From: Pelagomonas calceolata | Lineage: Eukaryota > Sar > Pelagophyceae > Pelagomonadales > Pelagomonadaceae | Direction of reading: 5' to 3' | Length of the DNA stretch: 64,000 bases | Assembly (NCBI GenBank): GCA_918797485.1 | Contig: CAKKNE010000004.1 | Coordinates: forward strand, 4,588,001-4,652,000 | Part shown: in pieces, positions 185 through 62,977 of the stretch | How positions within the stretch are numbered: position 1 is the stretch's first letter | How the letters are laid out: every line of letters begins with the position of its first letter | Translations under genes and position numbers: made by a program | The notes under the pieces: generated by a model | What the model was told of the DNA's origin: nothing | Databases searched by the model: none | The model's input: the letters and a program-made list of their open reading frames with translations, nothing else

Positions 185-208
185 GCTAGCGGCATGTAAG
201 ACACTAGC
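185..208 (-). promoter_or_regulatory. Class A near-palindromic promoter motif
   Basis: Read on the minus strand it is GCTAGTGTCTTACA, then TG, then CCGCTAGC. It differs from the copy at 2957-2980 by one base. No gene start was identified nearby, so its target is unknown here. Confidence 0.5.
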
Positions 209-1512: not shown

Positions 1513-1533
1513 CTAGCGCATCGACATACTAGG
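1513..1533 (-). promoter_or_regulatory. Class B near-palindromic motif
   Basis: On the minus strand this reads CTAGTATGTCGATGCGCTAG after a leading C. It is nearly identical to the class B copy at 12644-12664. It lies 120 bp beyond the stop of the minus-strand gene at 1654, so its target is not clear. Confidence 0.4.
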
Positions 1534-2956: not shown

Positions 2957-2980
2957 GCTAGTGTCTTACAAGCCGCTAGC
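2957..2980 (+). promoter_or_regulatory. Class A promoter motif between divergent genes
   Basis: GCTAGTGTCTTACA, AG, CCGCTAGC. The arms GCTAGTG and CGCTAGC are imperfect inverted repeats. The motif sits about 197 bp from the ATG of the minus-strand gene (2760) and 200 bp from the ATG of the plus-strand gene (3180). Confidence 0.6.
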
Positions 2981-4837: not shown

Positions 4838-4862
4838 GCTAGAGTCTTTACGGGCCGCTAGC
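4838..4862 (+). promoter_or_regulatory. Class A promoter motif (variant)
   Basis: GCTAGAGTCTTTAC, GGG, CCGCTAGC. One base longer than the common form. It lies 119 bp upstream of the minus-strand ATG at 4719 and 186 bp upstream of the plus-strand ATG at 5048, between divergent genes. Confidence 0.5.
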
Positions 4863-8163: not shown

Positions 8164-8497
8164 TTTCCGCCGACTTGTTTTGACGCGCGACGCGAAGTAG
8201 CGATGCGCGGGTAGCAGCGCGTACGACGCAGAGCAAGTTGTGCCTTTTGGAGGCCCCCAGCAAAATGCCTCTTGCGGCGGTTATCGATACCAAAAAGACG
8301 GGTTTGCAGCACGCAGCGCTCAAAAGTGAACGACAAATACGCCGCGCTGAGTCTTGCGCGACGACAGGCGCCTCCGTGGGGCGGGTCGTCTCGACGACCT
8401 GTTTGCTAGTGTCTCACACCGCTAGCTGCGCCGTCGACGCGAGCCTCCTGAAAACTATGATTCAGCACTCCTTACGCGCAGGAGAAAAGAAGAGAAG
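8164..8497. promoter_or_regulatory. Intergenic region with a class A motif
   Basis: This stretch lies between the ATG of the ankyrin/U-box gene and the stop codon of the GTPBP1-like gene, both on the minus strand. A 22-bp class A motif occupies 8405-8426 (GCTAGTGTCTCACA followed directly by CCGCTAGC), about 240 bp upstream of the ankyrin gene ATG. No other feature was seen. Confidence 0.5.
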
Positions 8498-12479: not shown

Positions 12480-12848
12480 GTGCTCTCTGAGTGGAGTGGT
12501 TGCTGATGAGTGGTTCCTGATGCCCAACGGCGCTCGCGTGAAATCGCTGGGAGTATGAGACGTAAAAACTGCTACAGAAACGTGAGATACGTCCTGTGTA
12601 GTGCTAGTCAGGCTGCACAAGTTCGACGGCTTTGGGTTGTTTCCTAGTATGTCGATACGCTAGCTCTCATTTTGCGCCCACTAGTCCTAGCACCGTAACA
12701 ACATGAAGTCACATCACGATAAATGAGAAAAAACAAGGAAATGCAGTTAAGGACTAAAAGGGTGTGATGGGGGTCGGAGCTAAATTCCCGAATGAAACGG
12801 GTCGTGGCTAGGCGGCCTAGCCCTAAGCAAAGCAAACGAACCAGAATG
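12480..12848. other. Intergenic region between two minus-strand genes
   Basis: Apart from the class B motif at 12644-12664, this holds AT-richer sequence near 12690-12780 and no supported gene. It should contain the rhodanese promoter and the 3' end of the upstream-lying gene's neighbour. Confidence 0.4.
12644..12664 (+). promoter_or_regulatory. Class B near-palindromic motif
   Basis: Arms CTAGTA and TACGCTAGC flank the 6-base centre TGTCGA. It differs from the copy at 46517-46537 at only three central positions and lies upstream of the rhodanese ATG. Confidence 0.45.
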
Positions 12849-14175: not shown

Positions 14176-14580
14176 CTCTGAGAGGGTTGATACAGTAATC
14201 GGCTTGCTTACTGCGCGTTGAGCAGCACAGTGTCAGAGGCTGATTCAGCCAAAGCAGTGCAGCGCGTCGTGCGGTGTTGCTGTGCTTGCGCTATGAGCTT
14301 GTGAGAGGTTGGAAAGCAAACTGCCGCGCCTGATCACACCTGTCACCACGCAGAGCGGCGGGAACTCGGTGGGAGGCAGAGCTGGCTAGCTAGCGTACCG
14401 AAAGCCTCTAGAAAAAGCACAATCCGCAGCTTGGAATCGCGCGAACAAGGGCATTCCAGCAGTAGTTGCAGTGCGCGAGTGACAATAGCACTCCCAGCAC
14501 GCAGCGCTAGCGGTCACAGCACTCAGCACGAACGACAGAGCAGTAGCAGCTCCGTAAGCAGTGAGAGCCACCAAGCGATC
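14176..14580. other. Divergent intergenic region
   Basis: Between the secreted protein gene (minus) and MetRS (plus). It contains a half-site of the class B type (GCTAGCTAGCGTACCG near 14384-14400) and GCAGTG/GCAGCAC-rich sequence seen in other promoters of the window. The reading frame open from 14431 into MetRS lacks an ATG before 14581, so it is treated as leader. Confidence 0.4.
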
Positions 14581-23533: not shown

Positions 23534-23998
23534 CCGCACTCACGCCGAGTTCCGGGCCGCGTCGACACACTCTGCAGAGCCTCTGCAGAGCCTCTCAGGC
23601 ATTCTCTCAATCATGCATTCGCACGACGCGATGCGCATGCGAAGGCTGCCCAGTTCGACGGCATCGCACAGGCTGCCCGGCAGAGCACGGCTGCTCTCGG
23701 AGGGGAACGCGCGTCGCCAGCGGCCGGTAAGACACTAGTTGGCGCTCTCCTTGGGGCTTTGAGGGGCAGCAAGTCTCGTTTTTTGCAACCGCTAGGCGAG
23801 GGGGGCTATAACAACATACATACTAGCATGAGATTTGAAGACACGCCTGGCATGGGCAGGGAGGGAAAGCTTATGCTAAGGACTAGGCATTGCAGCACTG
23901 AGAATTGTGCCTTGCGACGTCTGCTCGCTGCCCGGGCAGCGAGCGACAGCGTGCCGGCTGAATCAATCAACTAGTGAGCCAGGACCTGCCAAACCCTT
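23534..23998. other. Divergent intergenic region with class A motif
   Basis: Separates the kinase-like gene (minus) from the 7.4-kb receptor-like gene (plus). It includes the class A motif at 23716-23738, a tandem CTCTGCAGAGC pair near 23569-23592, and AT-richer sequence near 23800-23880. No gene recognised. Confidence 0.45.
23716..23738 (-). promoter_or_regulatory. Class A promoter motif between divergent genes
   Basis: Minus-strand reading CTAGTGTCTTACC, GG, CCGCTGGC. It lies 183 bp from the minus-strand ATG (23533) and about 260 bp from the plus-strand ATG (23999). Confidence 0.55.
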
Positions 23999-32981: not shown

Positions 32982-33004
32982 GCTAGCGGTATGTAACACA
33001 CTAG
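32982..33004 (-). promoter_or_regulatory. Class A promoter motif between NUP62 and PAM18
   Basis: Minus-strand reading CTAGTGTGTTACA, TA, CCGCTAGC. It lies 53 bp upstream of the NUP62 ATG and about 182 bp upstream of the PAM18 ATG. Confidence 0.6.
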
Positions 33005-33186
33005 TCAAACTCGACGCTTGTCTCAGCGGAGGCCTTATCACGTTGGAGCCATCGCTGTATTAGCGTATCATAACGCATCGCTGATTCGATACGGTTCTGC
33101 CTCGCGAACGAAATTGGAACCGGCACGCCGTGCCAATCTCAGGAGCCACACCTGCACGTCAATCAGCGCACGCCGCAAGAGCAACC

Positions 33187-41261: not shown

Positions 41262-41689
41262 GGCGTTTACTTATCCCCGGCGTCTCCGCGGGCGCTGACC
41301 GCTTCGAGGCACTTTTGCAGACTGTGGCGATCCCGTGACGCGCTGAGCCGGCCAGCGCGCGCCGCAGCGCCACGCACTGCTTGTTCTTTGCCCAAGCACC
41401 GTATGCAACTAGCGTCGATAAAGACACTAGCAAGCACGGACTCCAGCTTTTGACAGCCTGTTATCGCTGCAACACTGCACGTTGTACAGCTTACACGCTG
41501 AGAAAGTGTTGCACCAGCACGTAGCTGCTGCACTCAAGAACTGTGCATTTGTGCGTGCTTGACGGGCACAAAACACTCACCTCGCCAAAGCACTGCACAG
41601 CACCGCTGTGCAACCGCTCGCGGAAGGCAAAAGGTCACCGCGTAGCGCTGGCGCTGCTCCGCCGCCTCGCGCGACGCAGCATCAGCCTC
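41262..41689. promoter_or_regulatory. Divergent intergenic region with class A motif
   Basis: The motif is at 41409-41431 (minus-strand GCTAGTGTCTTTA, TCGA, CGCTAG), 148 bp from the lipase ATG and about 259 bp from the translin-TRAX ATG. The rest is GCAGTG/GCACTG-rich. No gene recognised; the frame open from 41543 begins with GTG and looks like leader. Confidence 0.5.
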
Positions 41690-46274: not shown

Positions 46275-46702
46275 GGCTGCGAAGTTCTAGCCGGTGTTCT
46301 TGCGAAGTTCTAGCCGGTGTTCTCGCGAACGTTGTGCGGCTTCAGAGTCTTCTTTTTGGCTGGGTGCTCTCCTAGACCGCAGATCTCGCGCTAAGCTGCT
46401 GCAGCAAAGACGCAGCGACAACGTAGGAACGATTTGACTATGTCAATTCGCAGCGCACAGCGCCAGGTGGCGTATGCAGGCTTGGCTCCGAAGACTTTTA
46501 AGCACTCGATTTTGGGCTAGTACGTTGCTACGCTAGCCGGCGTTTTTCCTAGCTATCCGTACCAGGACTCCGTGGCTCTTATCTTTGGCAGCGTCGTGCT
46601 TGTAAGTGTAAGTTTAATTCGTCACTACTCAGCCAAACTGCGGCATCACCTGGGTGGCAGGGGGCGTTGGCGTAAAAGAAAGGAGCTCGGGGCAGCATTA
46701 TC
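46275..46702. promoter_or_regulatory. Divergent intergenic region with class B motif
   Basis: A class B motif sits at 46517-46537: arms CTAGTA and TACGCTAGC around centre CGTTGC, extended by GG/CC to a longer palindrome. There is a short direct repeat of GCGAAGTTCTAGCCGGTGTT at 46278-46323. The motif is about 166 bp upstream of the plus-strand ATG. No other gene recognised. Confidence 0.5.
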
Positions 46703-54885: not shown

Positions 54886-54909
54886 GCTAGTGTCTTACAG
54901 GCCGCTAGC
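54886..54909 (+). promoter_or_regulatory. Class A promoter motif upstream of MYND gene
   Basis: GCTAGTGTCTTACA, GG, CCGCTAGC: the best consensus copy with those at 185 and 2957. It lies 78 bp upstream of the ATG at 54987 and 21 bp after the stop of the fusion gene. Confidence 0.6.
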
Positions 54910-55746: not shown

Positions 55747-58700
55747 TTACACTAGCGCCTGCGACGCCTGCTGCTCCACCTCAACCGCCACCTCCTGGAG
55801 CGTCGCGAGCCGCTCGGCCCCGAGCTGCGCGCATAGGGCCTCGAAGTCGCCCGCGCGCTTGCACGCGTGGAGCGCCCGGACAAAATGCTGGTTCGGGTCC
55901 TCGTCATCAAGAGGCGACTCGTACAGGTAGTTGTCCCCATCATCATCATCGTCGTCGTCGTGGAGCCACGCCTCGGCCGCGTCAAATTCAGCTAATCTTG
56001 CCCTAATTCCAGCGAGCTGCTGCGCGCCCATGCCGTTCTGGACGGCCTCCCGATCGTCGTCATCATCATCGTCCTCGTCGTCGTCGTCGTCGTCCTCGAC
56101 CCACTCGTCCTCGGCCGACGCGACGGCGTCGTCATCATCATCATCCTCCTTCCCGTAGATCTTGTCCTCCTTGTTCTTCCTCATGTTGGCGAGGACGTCG
56201 ACTAACGCCGAAAGCATCTGGGGTCTTGCTTGTTGTACTTTTGGCGGGCACGGCTCTACGGATAATACAGCAGACAATCCTAAAGCATATAGTTTACGAG
56301 AGAGCATGCCTTTTGCGTCTGGTGCTAATTCGAGCCACTTCGTCAGGAGCAGTTGCGTCTGAGCTGGTGTTACTTTGCCCTCATCTAATGCATGTAACGC
56401 TAATTGAGGGTTGTAGATCAGTAAGGAGTTCCACACATCTAGTAAAGCCGCACCTAACCGCGGCCGCCAGACGGCATCCGGCGACAGGCCAACCACACCG
56501 TCGGGCTTCGTGCCTATTTCATCTGCTCGAGGCGGGCCCAACGCTCGTTCCAAAGCGGCCGCGACCAAAGGCGTGCACCTTTGTCTGACATATTCATCGA
56601 CCCGACCTCGACAGTTGTGCAGCACCGACAGTAAAACATGAGTAGCCTTCCGGCAGTCTTCTTCCCCACCTCTCGTCTGGTTATCAGGCCACAAAAACCT
56701 CTCAGGAACACCCACCAAACTCTCCAACCGTGACGATGCCAAAAACTTCTCCGTGTCTCTCGACACAAAGTTGTCTAGAGACGGCACGAGCTCCGCGATG
56801 TAATCGCACCTGTGTGGAAATCAAAATTTTACGGCGCGTTCCACGCCATCGACGCGACGCCTGCTCGATGGCGTCCCGACACACTGATTTCCACACAGAA
56901 TCGCACGCGAACCCGTGGAACGCCCGGATCATCTGGTCGAACAAGCTCCACAACTCGTCCGAGAAGGGCGTCGAACCGTGGTACGTGAGATAAGATACCA
57001 CTTCGATGCCGTTCTCGAAGTACTCCAGAAACTCCCCCGACTCCTCAAAAACTCTGTGTAGTACGGGCCTCAGATACGGTTCGAGCTGCGCGTAGACGTT
57101 GTTCTCGTTATCATCTAGTGACGCAAGTACAGCGGCCATCGCTTCCACGCACTGGACCGCCGCCATGGACGCCTCCTCGTCGTCGTCTTCCCCCGCATAC
57201 GCGTGGAAGGCCTCGGCGAGTTTCTGGGCTAGCGCTACCGCGTAGGGGGCTATATCTTTGCCATACCTATCTACGACTATCTCCAGAGCTTGGACGACGT
57301 CATCAGAAGCCGCTTCTCGCATCACTCGGAAGCAGGCATCCAACAACGTGCCCAAATGTGGTCTGAGTAACTGATCGAATTGCCCGACGTCCGACGCGAG
57401 TAAACTTCTCACGAGACCAAACGCTTCGACGCGTACTGGTAGGTCCGGGTCGTCTAACGATCTCAATAAAGCAGCACATACCCTCTGATTTATTTCTGTC
57501 ACTGCAGTATGCTCCGAGAAGCGTTGTAGCGTTTCACACGCGCGACATCGCAAAATCCCGAACGGCGAGCCCTGTTCGAGGTCTGGTAACACATGCGTAG
57601 CTAGCAAGGCAGCAATCAAAGGCGCCCAGTTGTTTCGCGACTGCAACTCGTCCGCAATCGCACCTAAGGCACATAACGCGCCGTCCTTCTGTCTCGCCGT
57701 TTCTAGGGACGGTGCCTGCTGGTAGGCTTCCAGTACGGATGCGATTCTCTGCAATAACGGATCCAACACCACCTTGCCCTTGCACCGCACGAGATCACCG
57801 ACTAACGCCGTCGCCGCCGCTCGAGGTTCATAAAAGTCCTCGAGCGGGTCGTGGGCCCTCCTGACAAATTCTTGGGGATCCTCAGTAAAGCGTTTTATAT
57901 CCAAGGGCGTGGGACACATCGTCGGTAACGTGCACTCGAACAACACGAACTCCAAATGAGGTTTGAGTAATTTGTACAACGATCCGACTTCGACGGCTGA
58001 ACAGACGTAGGTGAAAGCTAGCTGTCTCACCCGTCGAGACACCCACCTACCACGAGCGGAAGCAGCTAACAACCCGAGCATACTATTCAAAAGTAGTGGA
58101 GCCACGTCGGCCGCGAACCTCCGCGCGAACTGCTTCGCGCCGTCTTCGGCGAACTTCGGCCTCCCATATCGCGTTAAGAATCTAGTGGCAATTTGCGCCG
58201 CCCACTTCTTGAGCTTCCAGGCCGGCTGCGTCTCCACGGCGTCGTCCTCCTCCGGGTGTTGGGCGGACGGCGCCGGCGCGTCCGACTCGAGGACCATCCG
58301 TACGTCCTCGAACCACCCTAGCACGACGGTGTCGTCGTTTAAGGCCACTCTCGGTAGCGCGAACTGCGTACAAGACCAGAAGATCTTGAGGATGAGTTTT
58401 GCTAATGATGCCGCGTCGGCGTGCTGGCCTGTTGACGGTAATACGGTCCTTAACAAATCTCGCAACAAAGGGAAGGCCTGCCTTACCAAATGTTCCAAAG
58501 GCCCTCTTGTGCTATTGTCGGCATCATCAGGAGAATTAGGATCGAAGGACTTGTACTCGTAGCGCTTGGCCACTTTTCTCAGAGCCAACAACGCGTTATG
58601 TACCGAAGTAGGATCGGGTTTGGCGTGGATCACTCTTAGTAGTGCAGGAAGGAGATCGGGCCACCGCTCCGGAAAGTCGCGCGTCGCCAATTCATTAACA

Positions 58701-59035: not shown

Positions 59036-59541
59036 GGTGTTGTGCAGCGTGCAGGCTGCAGCTCTCGCTAGTATGCGTTTGCTTGGTTATCTGATCGCAC
59101 GCGTGTGGTCCGGTTGCAGCAGCGTTGTCGCAACCTTTGCTGCCTCACTGACTGCGACAGGACCAGTGTTTCTGCAAATCGCCAAGCAAAATGCTTGTGA
59201 GCAGCATAATGACTAGCGTGCTCGCCCACTAGCCCATTCCCAGCTTTATCTTTGGCCAGTTCCTGTGGCTCTCGAGCGGCTCTGTCGACGCTAGACTCTG
59301 CGCGTAGGCTCGTGTCGCGCACAGGGGTCCCAGATCTCGAAATTCAGGCCTCGTCGTGCGTGAAACCCAAAATTTCTCGCCAGGCTGCGATCTGAGAAGG
59401 CAATCGCAGACGCGCGCGCACACCATCGCTCTCAAACACACTCGCCGACGGCGACGAAAAGGCCCGAGGTAAAAGAGGCGTCGACATCAGCACGGTTTGA
59501 CCACGCGCCGCGGGCGTCGAGAGTCGAGACGACATCGGATC
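59036..59541. other. Divergent intergenic region
   Basis: Between the importin gene (minus) and the small membrane protein gene (plus). A weak class A-like site is at 59213-59233: minus-strand GCTAGTGGGCGAGCACGCTA. Another CGCTAGTATGCG half-site is near 59077-59088. No gene recognised. Confidence 0.4.
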
Positions 59542-61282: not shown

Positions 61283-62977
61283 ATGCTGCGCCTCCTCGCC
61301 GTCGCAGCGATGGCACGCGCCTTACCGCGCAACGACGGCAAGTCCGACGAAAAGCTCAGCCACGAGGCCCAGACCTACTACGACCCGGCCGCGCAGACGT
61401 TCGCATTATATACTCTGTTAGGAGTGCCGACAAATGCGACGTTGACCGAGATCGACCGGGCCTTCGTCAAGCACAAGAACGATTTAGAGAGGAACAGGAA
61501 AAACAAGAAGAACGTCCAGATCTATGGGCTGATCTACAAGTCCTTGGATGAGGACGAGGACGGCTTGTTGAGTGCAGAAGAAAGTGAGAGTCTCGTGGAG
61601 GCGTTGGGTCTACGATTCGATGAGGAGGACGATCATGTGCAAGAGTCCGTCGCCAAGTTCCGGAGGAGGACCTGCACGGACAAAGACGCTGTATTTAGTT
61701 CAAAGGAACACCTCATGATTGTGGCGACCTACGCCTCGCTGCGCACGGCGCGCGTGACGCTCGGTGATGCGGAGATGCGGACTAAGTATGATGAGCAGGA
61801 GCGCATCAAAGCGCGGGAGTATGCTGAAGACGTCGACGACGACAATACGTACCTGGGCGCCGCGAAGCGCAAAGTTTTTGGCGTCATCTACTACGGGATC
61901 TATGGCGGCATTGTAGTGTGGACAATTGTAGCGGTCATTGCGTGTCTGGCGTACGTGGCTTGCAAAGCGCTCGCGTCCATACCGAACGCGCCGCCTCTGT
62001 TCGGGCGGTGCGCCGACCGCTGCGGAAGCGTCTTGATTTGGATTAACCCAGGGTGGAGTACGGTGTGCACACTCGCGTTTTGCGCGCCGAGTACGGTCCT
62101 CGCGGCGATGTTGTCAGCTTTTGCGGTATTCTTGTTCCTCTTTAGTCTGCTCGCGAAGACGCCCGTCGTTCTTCAGAGGGGGCTTTGCGCCTTGATCATT
62201 GCCGCACTGCTCGCGTGGCTCGTACCGGCCTGTGTGGAAATCAACCAGTGCGTCGGGTGCTGCCACGCCATCGAGCAGGCGTCGCATCGATGGCGTGGAG
62301 GTCGACGCGGAACGCGCCGTAAAATTTTGATTTCCACACAGGTACCGGCCGTAAAAAATGTGCTGACGCGCCCACGGGAACATGTGAGACGCCTCGTCCA
62401 GGGCCTGCGCGGCCTCGGTAGAGAGGCCTGGGGCGTCGGGAAGGTTTTGGTGCCGGGTGCGGCCCTGGGACTGGTCTACTCGATGTTCGAGGTGGAGCTC
62501 GAGACGCACCTGCTCACGGCTTTAGCGGGAGGCGTCGTTGTCATCATGGCGGTGAAGCCGCTGCGGAGCCGCGCGTTCCGCTACCTCGGCCAGGCGCTGG
62601 CCGACACGGGCGTCACTCAGCCGCCGAGCGAGGCGCCGCGCATCCTCGAAGCCTTGCAGCGCCTCGCCACTTTACCCGTGGAACTATACGTTCCGATCAA
62701 CGTCCTGGACGACGCGCAAGTCAAGGCCAAGCTCGAACGAGCCGGCTTCTCGCGCCGCGACGGCGCCGCGACGCCGAGCCGCGCCGAGCTCGAGGCGGCC
62801 TACGACGACGCCTATGGCGCCTGCACCGTGTGCTTCGCTCAGTTTGAAGCCGGCGACGAGTGCGTGCGCCTCCTCTGCGGGCACGTCTTCCACCGCGACT
62901 GCGTGGTCCAGTGGGTGAACACGCGGACGGAGTCGGGCCGCGTGCCGACGTGCCCCCAGTGCACCTGTGACATGTGA
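61283..62977 (+). CDS. Membrane RING-H2 ligase with degenerate J domain and EF-hand
   Basis: Exons 61283-62221 and 62342-62977 give 524 aa. After a signal-like start (MLRLLAVAAMARALP), the first part of a J domain appears (LYTLLGVPTNATLTEIDRAF). Its second part (YASLRTARVTLGDAEMRTKY) comes only about 90 residues later, and HPD is missing. Between them is an EF-hand-like loop (LDEDEDGLLSAEESESLVEA). Several membrane spans follow (about 210-235, 260-325, 375-430). A C-terminal RING-H2 (CTVCFAQFEAGDECVRLLCG, HVFHRDCVVQW, CPQC) ends the protein. It could be a calcium-responsive ER membrane E3 ligase. Without splicing, a 40-residue insert would be added in frame. Confidence 0.8.
   Translation: MLRLLAVAAMARALPRNDGKSDEKLSHEAQTYYDPAAQTFALYTLLGVPTNATLTEIDRAFVKHKNDLERNRKNKKNVQIYGLIYKSLDEDEDGLLSAEESESLVEALGLRFDEEDDHVQESVAKFRRRTCTDKDAVFSSKEHLMIVATYASLRTARVTLGDAEMRTKYDEQERIKAREYAEDVDDDNTYLGAAKRKVFGVIYYGIYGGIVVWTIVAVIACLAYVACKALASIPNAPPLFGRCADRCGSVLIWINPGWSTVCTLAFCAPSTVLAAMLSAFAVFLFLFSLLAKTPVVLQRGLCALIIAALLAWLVPACVEINQCVGCCHAIEQASHRWRGGRRGTRRKILISTQVPAVKNVLTRPREHVRRLVQGLRGLGREAWGVGKVLVPGAALGLVYSMFEVELETHLLTALAGGVVVIMAVKPLRSRAFRYLGQALADTGVTQPPSEAPRILEALQRLATLPVELYVPINVLDDAQVKAKLERAGFSRRDGAATPSRAELEAAYDDAYGACTVCFAQFEAGDECVRLLCGHVFHRDCVVQWVNTRTESGRVPTCPQCTCDM
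62230..62341 (+). mobile_element. Introner element in RING gene
   Basis: A 112-bp element with terminal repeats CTGTGTGGAAATCAA and TTTTGATTTCCACACAG. It is flanked by perfect 8-bp duplicates GTACCGGC (62222-62229 and 62342-62349). The intron is 62222-62341 (120 nt): donor GT from the left duplicate, acceptor AG from the element end. No stop codon in frame. The last 33 bases are identical to those of the importin element. Confidence 0.95.

What the first reader, a model, noticed from the sequence alone, without database searches (positions are those of the whole stretch)
2957..2980. Class A motif: a recurrent 24-bp near-palindrome in promoters
GCTAGTGTCTTACA, two variable bases, CCGCTAGC recurs at 185, 2957, 4838, 8405, 23716, 32982, 41409 and 54886 (weakly at 59213), in both orientations. 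None lies inside a called gene, five lie between divergent starts, and distances to ATGs are about 50-260 bp. Targets include complex I, NUP62, PAM18, lipase and translin-TRAX. I know of no described pelagophyte element like it.
Basis: partly seen in the sequence, partly recalled or inferred. Interest (0 to 1): 0.75.

Follow-up and report, generated by a model that had tools for sequence, protein, structure and literature searches.

The report
Genome-wide two-way promoter element in algae
A short, nearly mirror-image DNA word sits midway between back-to-back genes thousands of times in the genome of a tiny ocean alga and is kept in a related alga, which suggests that one unknown protein helps organise many of its two-way promoters.

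Summary
The window lies in a 32.4-Mb, 8-contig genome that fits Pelagomonas calceolata. The 24-bp consensus (up to 2 mismatches) occurs 1,831 times genome-wide, against 0 for the reversed control. It belongs to a broader frame, CTAGTG-N4..16-CGCTAG, with 4,133 copies against 58 for the control. In 264 kb of unselected sequence, 0 of 41 sites lie in coding DNA, which is 79% of that sequence; 27 lie in divergent gaps, 12 in tandem gaps, 1 in a convergent gap and 1 at an edge. Allowing one mismatch in the arms, 39 of 57 divergent gaps carry an element. Sites sit near mid-gap, about 200 bp from the starts. It is not a true palindrome: the asymmetric form outnumbers the symmetric forms 4,133 to 153 and 52. 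Contigs of a pelagophyte relative, misfiled in a bacterial MAG, keep both arms in 4 of 4 orthologous promoters compared. Best reading: the binding site of an unidentified general regulatory factor at promoters, mostly bidirectional ones. Neither the factor nor any open-chromatin effect is shown. Mobile-element and RNA-hairpin readings are disfavoured.

The parts
185..208 (-). element, exact consensus
   Evidence: no gene called on its left within the window
2957..2980 (+). element, exact consensus, midway between divergent ATGs at 2760 and 3180
4838..4862 (+). element variant (3-bp spacer, 4 mismatches) in a divergent gap
8405..8426 (+). element with no spacer, tandem gap upstream of the ankyrin/U-box gene
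23716..23739 (-). element, 3 mismatches, divergent gap
32982..33005 (-). element, TGTTACA core variant, between Nsp1/NUP62-type and DnaJ/Pam16-type genes
41408..41431 (-). element, intact arms with variant core, between lipase and translin genes
54886..54909 (+). element, exact consensus, tandem gap upstream of a MYND-finger gene
59213..59232 (-). arms-only member (CTAGTG..CGCTAG with unrelated core), mid divergent gap
1513..1532 (-). related 'TGTCGAT' core member CTAGTATGTCGATGCGCTAG
12644..12663 (+). related 'TGTCGAT' core member CTAGTATGTCGATACGCTAG, tandem gap
14390..14411 (-). arms with one mismatch, mid divergent gap (222/230 bp)
46517..46536 (+). arms with one mismatch, mid divergent gap (249/212 bp)

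Best explanation
It is the double-stranded DNA binding site of one abundant, sequence-specific general regulatory factor (or a tight family of them) that marks promoters in this pelagophyte lineage, above all shared promoters of divergent gene pairs. The protein would grip two related but non-identical outer arms (CTAGTG and CGCTAG) across a flexible core, 6-12 bp in the sampled perfect-arm sites and most often TSTTACANNM. Bound mid-gap, it would keep nucleosomes off so that transcription can start on both sides; upstream of tandem genes it would do the same for one gene. SHOWN: copy number, asymmetry, exclusion from coding DNA in the sample, position relative to starts, mixed orientation, conservation in a relative. 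INFERRED: that a protein binds it, that it clears nucleosomes, and that it acts on both genes.
For: Copies: 1,831 (control 0); perfect arms 4,133 (control 58). Coding: 0 of 41 sites where 79.2% of sequence is coding, binomial p 1e-28. Perfect-arm sites: 41 noncoding, 0 coding; arms with up to 1 mismatch occupy 39 of 57 divergent, 18 of 88 tandem and 2 of 56 convergent gaps, 12 sets of shuffled arms on average 1.4, 1.5 and 0.25. Mid-gap placement: rms offset 0.149 of gap length against 0.288 for uniform, 0 of 20,000 simulations as small, 27 sites in 26 gaps. Tandem gaps: median 196 bp to the downstream start (sd 61) against 88 bp to the upstream stop (sd 182), n=20, 8 of them fetched because they hold exact copies. 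Orientation in tandem gaps 12 same, 8 opposite. Sharp edges and no flanking homology. Core and arms predict each other: 23 of 33 noncoding TSTTACA words are directly preceded by CTAGTG, 0 of 10 coding ones. Conservation: 4 of 4 orthologous promoters compared between two diverged lineages keep both arms in the same orientation, while flanks anchored without gaps match at 2-11 of 20 per 5-bp bin; in one pair the core is swapped (TGTCGTGC for TCTTACATGA) with the arms kept. In the brown alga Ectocarpus, also a stramenopile, close divergent pairs share one nucleosome-depleted region (PMC7784034, abstract and passages).
Against: No chromatin, TSS or binding data exist here, and no binding protein was sought. 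The specificity, more than 30 bits (inflated by choosing perfect arms), far exceeds the ~14 bits needed to mark about 4,000 sites (my arithmetic), unusual for a single factor. Density per base is only about twofold higher in divergent than in tandem gaps (27 per 24.7 kb against 12 per 21.7 kb). 18 of 57 divergent gaps lack a copy at up to 1 arm mismatch, and at 2 mismatches the signal nears background: 43 divergent gaps against 20.8 for shuffled arms, 5 convergent against 4.4. Orthologue pairs were picked because the relative has the element, and in one of the four (L064/L068) much of the promoter is conserved, not the element alone.
Confidence: 0.7

Rival explanations
1. A miniature mobile element (MITE-like palindrome) that inserts into open promoter chromatin and has spread passively.
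For: High copy number, near-palindromic ends, information beyond what a site needs, both orientations. Flanking matches are mildly raised at k=4 (5 of 350 against 1.6 expected) with one match each at k=5, 6 and 7 against 0.5, 0.1 and 0.2.
Against: No element body; conservation stops within a few bases of the 24-mer. Flanking matches at expectation for k=2 (23 against 22.5), little above for k=3 (8 against 5.4), none at k=8 or 9. Arms stay constant while core and spacer vary (those sites were chosen by their arms) and across lineages in diverged flanks. The genome's evident intron-type repeat ACGCCATCGA behaves otherwise: 34 of 43 copies in tandem (intron-like) gaps, 1 in a divergent gap.
Confidence: 0.08
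2. An RNA hairpin in transcript leaders or ends (the U-G wobble makes the forward strand a near-perfect stem).
For: The forward strand folds at -9.0 kcal/mol against -5.3 for the reverse; the class B strand likewise -7.1 against -3.0. The constant T/C asymmetry of the arms is what a U-G pair would give.
Against: Orientation to the downstream gene is mixed: 12 same, 8 opposite. Sites lie midway between divergent genes, where one orientation cannot serve both. Symmetric, fully paired versions are rare rather than favoured: 153 and 52 sites.
Confidence: 0.05
3. An architectural or boundary element, or a replication-origin mark, that separates rather than co-activates the two divergent promoters.
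For: Mid-gap position, high information content and orientation indifference fit a CTCF-like or origin-binding factor equally well.
Against: Also present upstream of single tandem genes at a similar distance from the start, where no pair needs separating. At one perfect-arm copy per ~8 kb it is dense for origins.
Confidence: 0.12

Closest known systems
Yeast general regulatory factor sites (Abf1, Reb1)
   Same: Sites proposed to establish nucleosome-free regions; up to 90% of sites of such factors lie in those regions in S. cerevisiae, and the repertoire changes between yeast lineages (PMC2897762, passages).
   Different: Here the site is about 24 bp with two mirrored, non-identical arms, and occupies 39 of 57 sampled divergent gaps. 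Protein unknown. Yeast motif sequences were not compared by any search.
Ronin/THAP11 hyperconserved promoter motif of vertebrates (partly shared with ZNF143)
   Same: A conserved promoter sequence of many genes, with binding immediately upstream of start sites; Ronin derives from a domesticated transposon (PMC5695914, summary and passages).
   Different: Sequence unrelated to CTGGGARWTGT by eye; no such protein shown here.
Shared nucleosome-depleted regions of divergent pairs in the brown alga Ectocarpus
   Same: Stramenopile; divergent gaps of about 400 bp (median 409 there, 440 between my coding calls here) serve both genes (PMC7784034, abstract and passages).
   Different: The abstract and passages that I saw name no sequence element.
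Introner elements (pelagophytes; intron lengths peak near 210 bp in P. calceolata)
   Same: High-copy short repeat said to be of this kind in the same genome (PMC9481584, passages).
   Different: Introners are introns; this element sits mostly between genes, is 24 bp long and has no body.

Membership tests
general regulatory factor-type promoter site | concentrated upstream of starts, absent from coding DNA | tested here: met
   0 of 41 coding; median 196 bp to downstream start in tandem gaps, n=20
general regulatory factor-type promoter site | no strand bias relative to the gene | tested here: met
   12 same, 8 opposite of 20 tandem sites; position only, function not tested
general regulatory factor-type promoter site | kept between species | tested here: met
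   4 of 4 orthologous promoters compared keep both arms; pairs chosen on the relative's copy
general regulatory factor-type promoter site | bound by a protein that clears nucleosomes | not testable with these tools
   needs chromatin and binding data
general regulatory factor-type promoter site | identified cognate factor | not tested
   no search for the binding protein was made
MITE / terminal-inverted-repeat element | target-site duplication | tested here: not met
   no consistent excess, k=2-9; k=4 mildly raised (5 against 1.6), one match each at k=5-7
MITE / terminal-inverted-repeat element | shared internal body or homologous flanks | tested here: not met
   conservation ends within a few bases of the 24-mer
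RNA stem-loop regulatory element | fixed strand relative to the transcript | tested here: not met
   12 same, 8 opposite
Introner element | lies as an intron inside genes | tested here: not met
   27 of 41 sites in divergent gaps
Ronin/THAP11 site | CTGGGARWTGT motif | tested here: not met
   consensus by eye against the motif printed in PMC5695914

The most novel reading that the evidence does not exclude
A lineage-specific, single-factor promoter code: one large DNA-binding protein with two inverted, non-identical recognition modules (perhaps a domesticated transposase, since the arms look like degenerate terminal repeats) organises most bidirectional promoters of a widespread ocean alga. 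The arms would be fixed and the interchangeable cores would carry sub-class information, for example which co-factor or programme applies.
Probability: 0.25. Interest if true: 0.88.

Novelty: new variant of a known kind. Interest (0 to 1): 0.74.

Why it matters
How transcription start regions are specified in pelagophytes appears little described: no title or abstract start in my search listings reports such an element (some lists were capped), and the main texts of PMC9481584 and PMC13284251 do not use the words promoter or motif. An element found in 39 of 57 sampled divergent gaps, conserved in a relative and easy to score in sequence makes promoter architecture in this group directly testable, gives a handle for isolating a main promoter factor, and supplies a practical gene-start signature for annotation and transgenics.

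Tried and rejected
Mobile element: looked for target duplications and shared flanks, none convincing. RNA hairpin: folds well on one strand but orientation to genes is mixed. True palindrome: rejected by the counts of symmetric forms. Viral origin: 0 matches of two class A patterns in the viral contig collection, which may leave out near records. Coding bias: the TAG stop inside CTAG could deplete the word in genes; the centring, tandem-distance and divergent-against-convergent results are within noncoding DNA and do not depend on it. Length bias: convergent gaps are short (median 84 bp); restricted to gaps of at least 150 bp the contrast is weaker, 26 of 57 divergent against 1 of 13 convergent, Fisher p 0.012. 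Whole-MAG counts are no evidence by themselves: the reversed control exceeds the real pattern in G001 (20 against 9), G002 (100 against 1) and G003 (21 against 1); the case rests on the orthologue alignments. L050/L059 (G002) was not shown to be pelagophyte and is left out of the conservation count; by my estimate several chance matches are expected in a collection of that size. L052/L056 (93.8% identity) is too close to inform and is also left out of the 4 of 4; L053/L067 and L060-L063 were not mapped to G000 because no search was left. A global alignment of L049/L054 did not line the element up because its distance to the gene differs; the BLAST found it. A composition profile showed AT-richer flanks near the element but is confounded by coding DNA further out.

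Full report
WHERE THE WINDOW IS. The window is G000:C4:4588001-4652000 of a 32,445,274-base genome in 8 contigs. Six nuclear contigs totalling 32.4 Mb plus one plastid and one mitochondrial contig is what the P. calceolata genome paper reports (PMC9481584, passages seen). I take the genome to be that species or very near it; no tool named it.

THE OBSERVATION. The stated consensus is exact at three of the nine stated places and within 1-5 mismatches, some with spacer changes, at five more; 59213 keeps only the arms. Genome-wide the consensus with up to 2 mismatches occurs 940 times on one strand and 891 on the other; the reversed-pattern control gives 0. In the window and 200 kb of chromosome 1, a loose search (up to 6 mismatches) gives 67 rows, some of them the same site twice; reversed half-sites give 15 and shuffled half-sites 10.8 on average of 10.

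GENE CONTEXT. No annotation was available, so I trained a small hidden Markov model on the 264 kb; it% coding, with 57 divergent, 88 tandem (some may be introns) and 56 convergent gaps. Pfam recognises 11 of 15 translated flanking stretches, 2 of these only below the curated cut-off, which supports the frames. Of 41 sites (up to 3 mismatches to a degenerate consensus, spacer 0-4), none is coding, 27 are divergent, 12 tandem, 1 convergent (a copy with 3 mismatches), 1 at the window edge. Within divergent gaps the sites lie near the middle; in tandem gaps they keep a steadier distance to the downstream start than to the upstream stop. At 2957-2980 the flanking ATGs are at 2760 and 3180, 197 and 200 bp away. 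Per base the density is 1.09 per kb in divergent, 0.55 in tandem and 0.15 in convergent gaps.

ANATOMY. Aligning 59 copies with the 2-bp spacer (taken from 70 sites, 29 of which lie in stretches fetched for an exact copy), conservation covers about TT-GCTAGTGTCTTACANNCCGCTAGC-T and drops to nothing within a few bases on both sides. To reduce circularity I selected sites by the arms alone and read the core, then by the core alone and read the arms. Arms-selected sites (41 in 264 kb, all noncoding) have spacers of 10 bp in 26, 9 in 6, 8 in 4, 6 in 2, and 7, 11 and 12 in one each; the 10-bp core is mostly TSTTACANNM. Core-selected: 33 noncoding TSTTACA words, 23 directly preceded by CTAGTG and 24 followed by CGCTAG within 8 bases; 10 coding ones, none with either. 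Genome-wide the frame CTAGTG-N4..16-CGCTAG occurs 4,133 times against 58 for the control, CTAGTG..CACTAG at 153 sites (control 15) and CTAGCG..CGCTAG at 52 (control 92). The element is therefore directional despite its palindromic look. A second core class, CTAGTATGTCGATRCGCTAG, occurs 179 times with up to 2 mismatches, control 0; many of the listed one-mismatch copies have G for the sixth base. Allowing one mismatch in the 12 arm bases, 39 of 57 divergent gaps hold an element (shuffled arms 1.4 on average); with two mismatches 43 do, against 20.8.

CONSERVATION. An exact scan of the prokaryote genome collection gave 5 contigs from 3 MAGs. L049, L058 (the site of L051), L064 and L065, all from the MAG labelled Spirochaeta sp. 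MED672 (G001), match G000 DNA at 81-89% in their main pieces, with one promoter piece at 70%, so these contigs are misfiled DNA of a pelagophyte relative. In all 4 orthologous promoters that I could compare, G000 has the element too, in the same orientation, with both 6-base arms identical; the flanks aligned without gaps match at 2-11 of 20 per 5-bp bin over the first 30 bp on each side (alignments; L049/L054, where BLAST finds the 23-bp element beyond the end of the 83% match). In L065/L069 the core differs in sequence and length while the arms stand. In L064/L068 the core differs by one base and one insertion, but other promoter blocks are conserved too. The pairs were chosen because the relative has the element. 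A fifth pair, L052/L056 (93.8%), is too close to inform.

MECHANISM. Mixed orientation and mid-gap position argue for a double-stranded DNA site rather than an RNA; unrelated flanks, absence of clear duplications, core turnover and conservation argue against a passive mobile repeat. The genome's own intron-type repeat (ACGCCATCGA/TCGATGGCGT) shows the contrasting pattern: 34 of 43 copies in tandem, intron-like gaps and 1 in a divergent gap. The best reading is a general-regulatory-factor site; I infer that it keeps a shared nucleosome-depleted region open, as divergent pairs share one in Ectocarpus (PMC7784034, abstract and passages) and as is proposed for such factors in yeasts (PMC2897762, passages). 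The arms are related but unequal, which suggests two related modules in one chain or a heterodimer. These steps are not shown.

LITERATURE. Searches for a pelagophyte or stramenopile element of this kind showed none in the titles and abstract starts listed (20 of 42 papers listed; 7 of 8; 15 of 57; 4 of 4; 10 of 29; 6 of 6). In the main text of PMC9481584 the words promoter, motif and palindrome do not occur, nor do they in PMC13284251; supplements were not read. The giant-virus early promoter motif reported for Aureococcus virus is A/T-rich and unrelated (PMC5917014, passages). The library holds open-licence papers only, and no named pelagophyte genome beyond this one was searched.

Noticed in passing
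window 56806-56899 and 62265-62343: A ~70-nt sequence occurs in inverted orientation at two places in intron-like gaps (arms of 38 and 35 nt, each 97% complementary). Its ends ACGCCATCGA/TCGATGGCGT occur 43 times in 264 kb, 34 of them in tandem (intron-like) gaps: a likely introner family.
   Followed up: partly
L049, L051-L053, L057-L058, L060-L067: MAGs filed as Spirochaeta (MED672) and Desulfobacteraceae contain contigs of pelagophyte DNA: contamination of prokaryote genome collections. Homology to G000 was shown for 5 loci only (L049, L052, L058, L064, L065); the others are presumed.
   Followed up: partly
G000, for example C1:1196660: A symmetric-arm word CTAGTGAGTTTTGCGCCACTAG recurs identically at nine places in the capped list, six of them in C1:2.72-3.01 Mb; it looks like a separate repeat and contains an E2F-like TTTTGCGCC (recalled).
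   Followed up: no
L060-L063 (G001:C141): Four same-strand coding stretches of the relative each have one element about 130-360 bp upstream, all in the same orientation.
   Followed up: no
L064/L068 promoter: Beside the element, blocks CTTTGACTCCAAACGACTAG and GTGCACGCCCGGGGAGTCCCAAAAGCCTCACAGCCTCT before the right-hand ATG are also conserved between the lineages.
   Followed up: no
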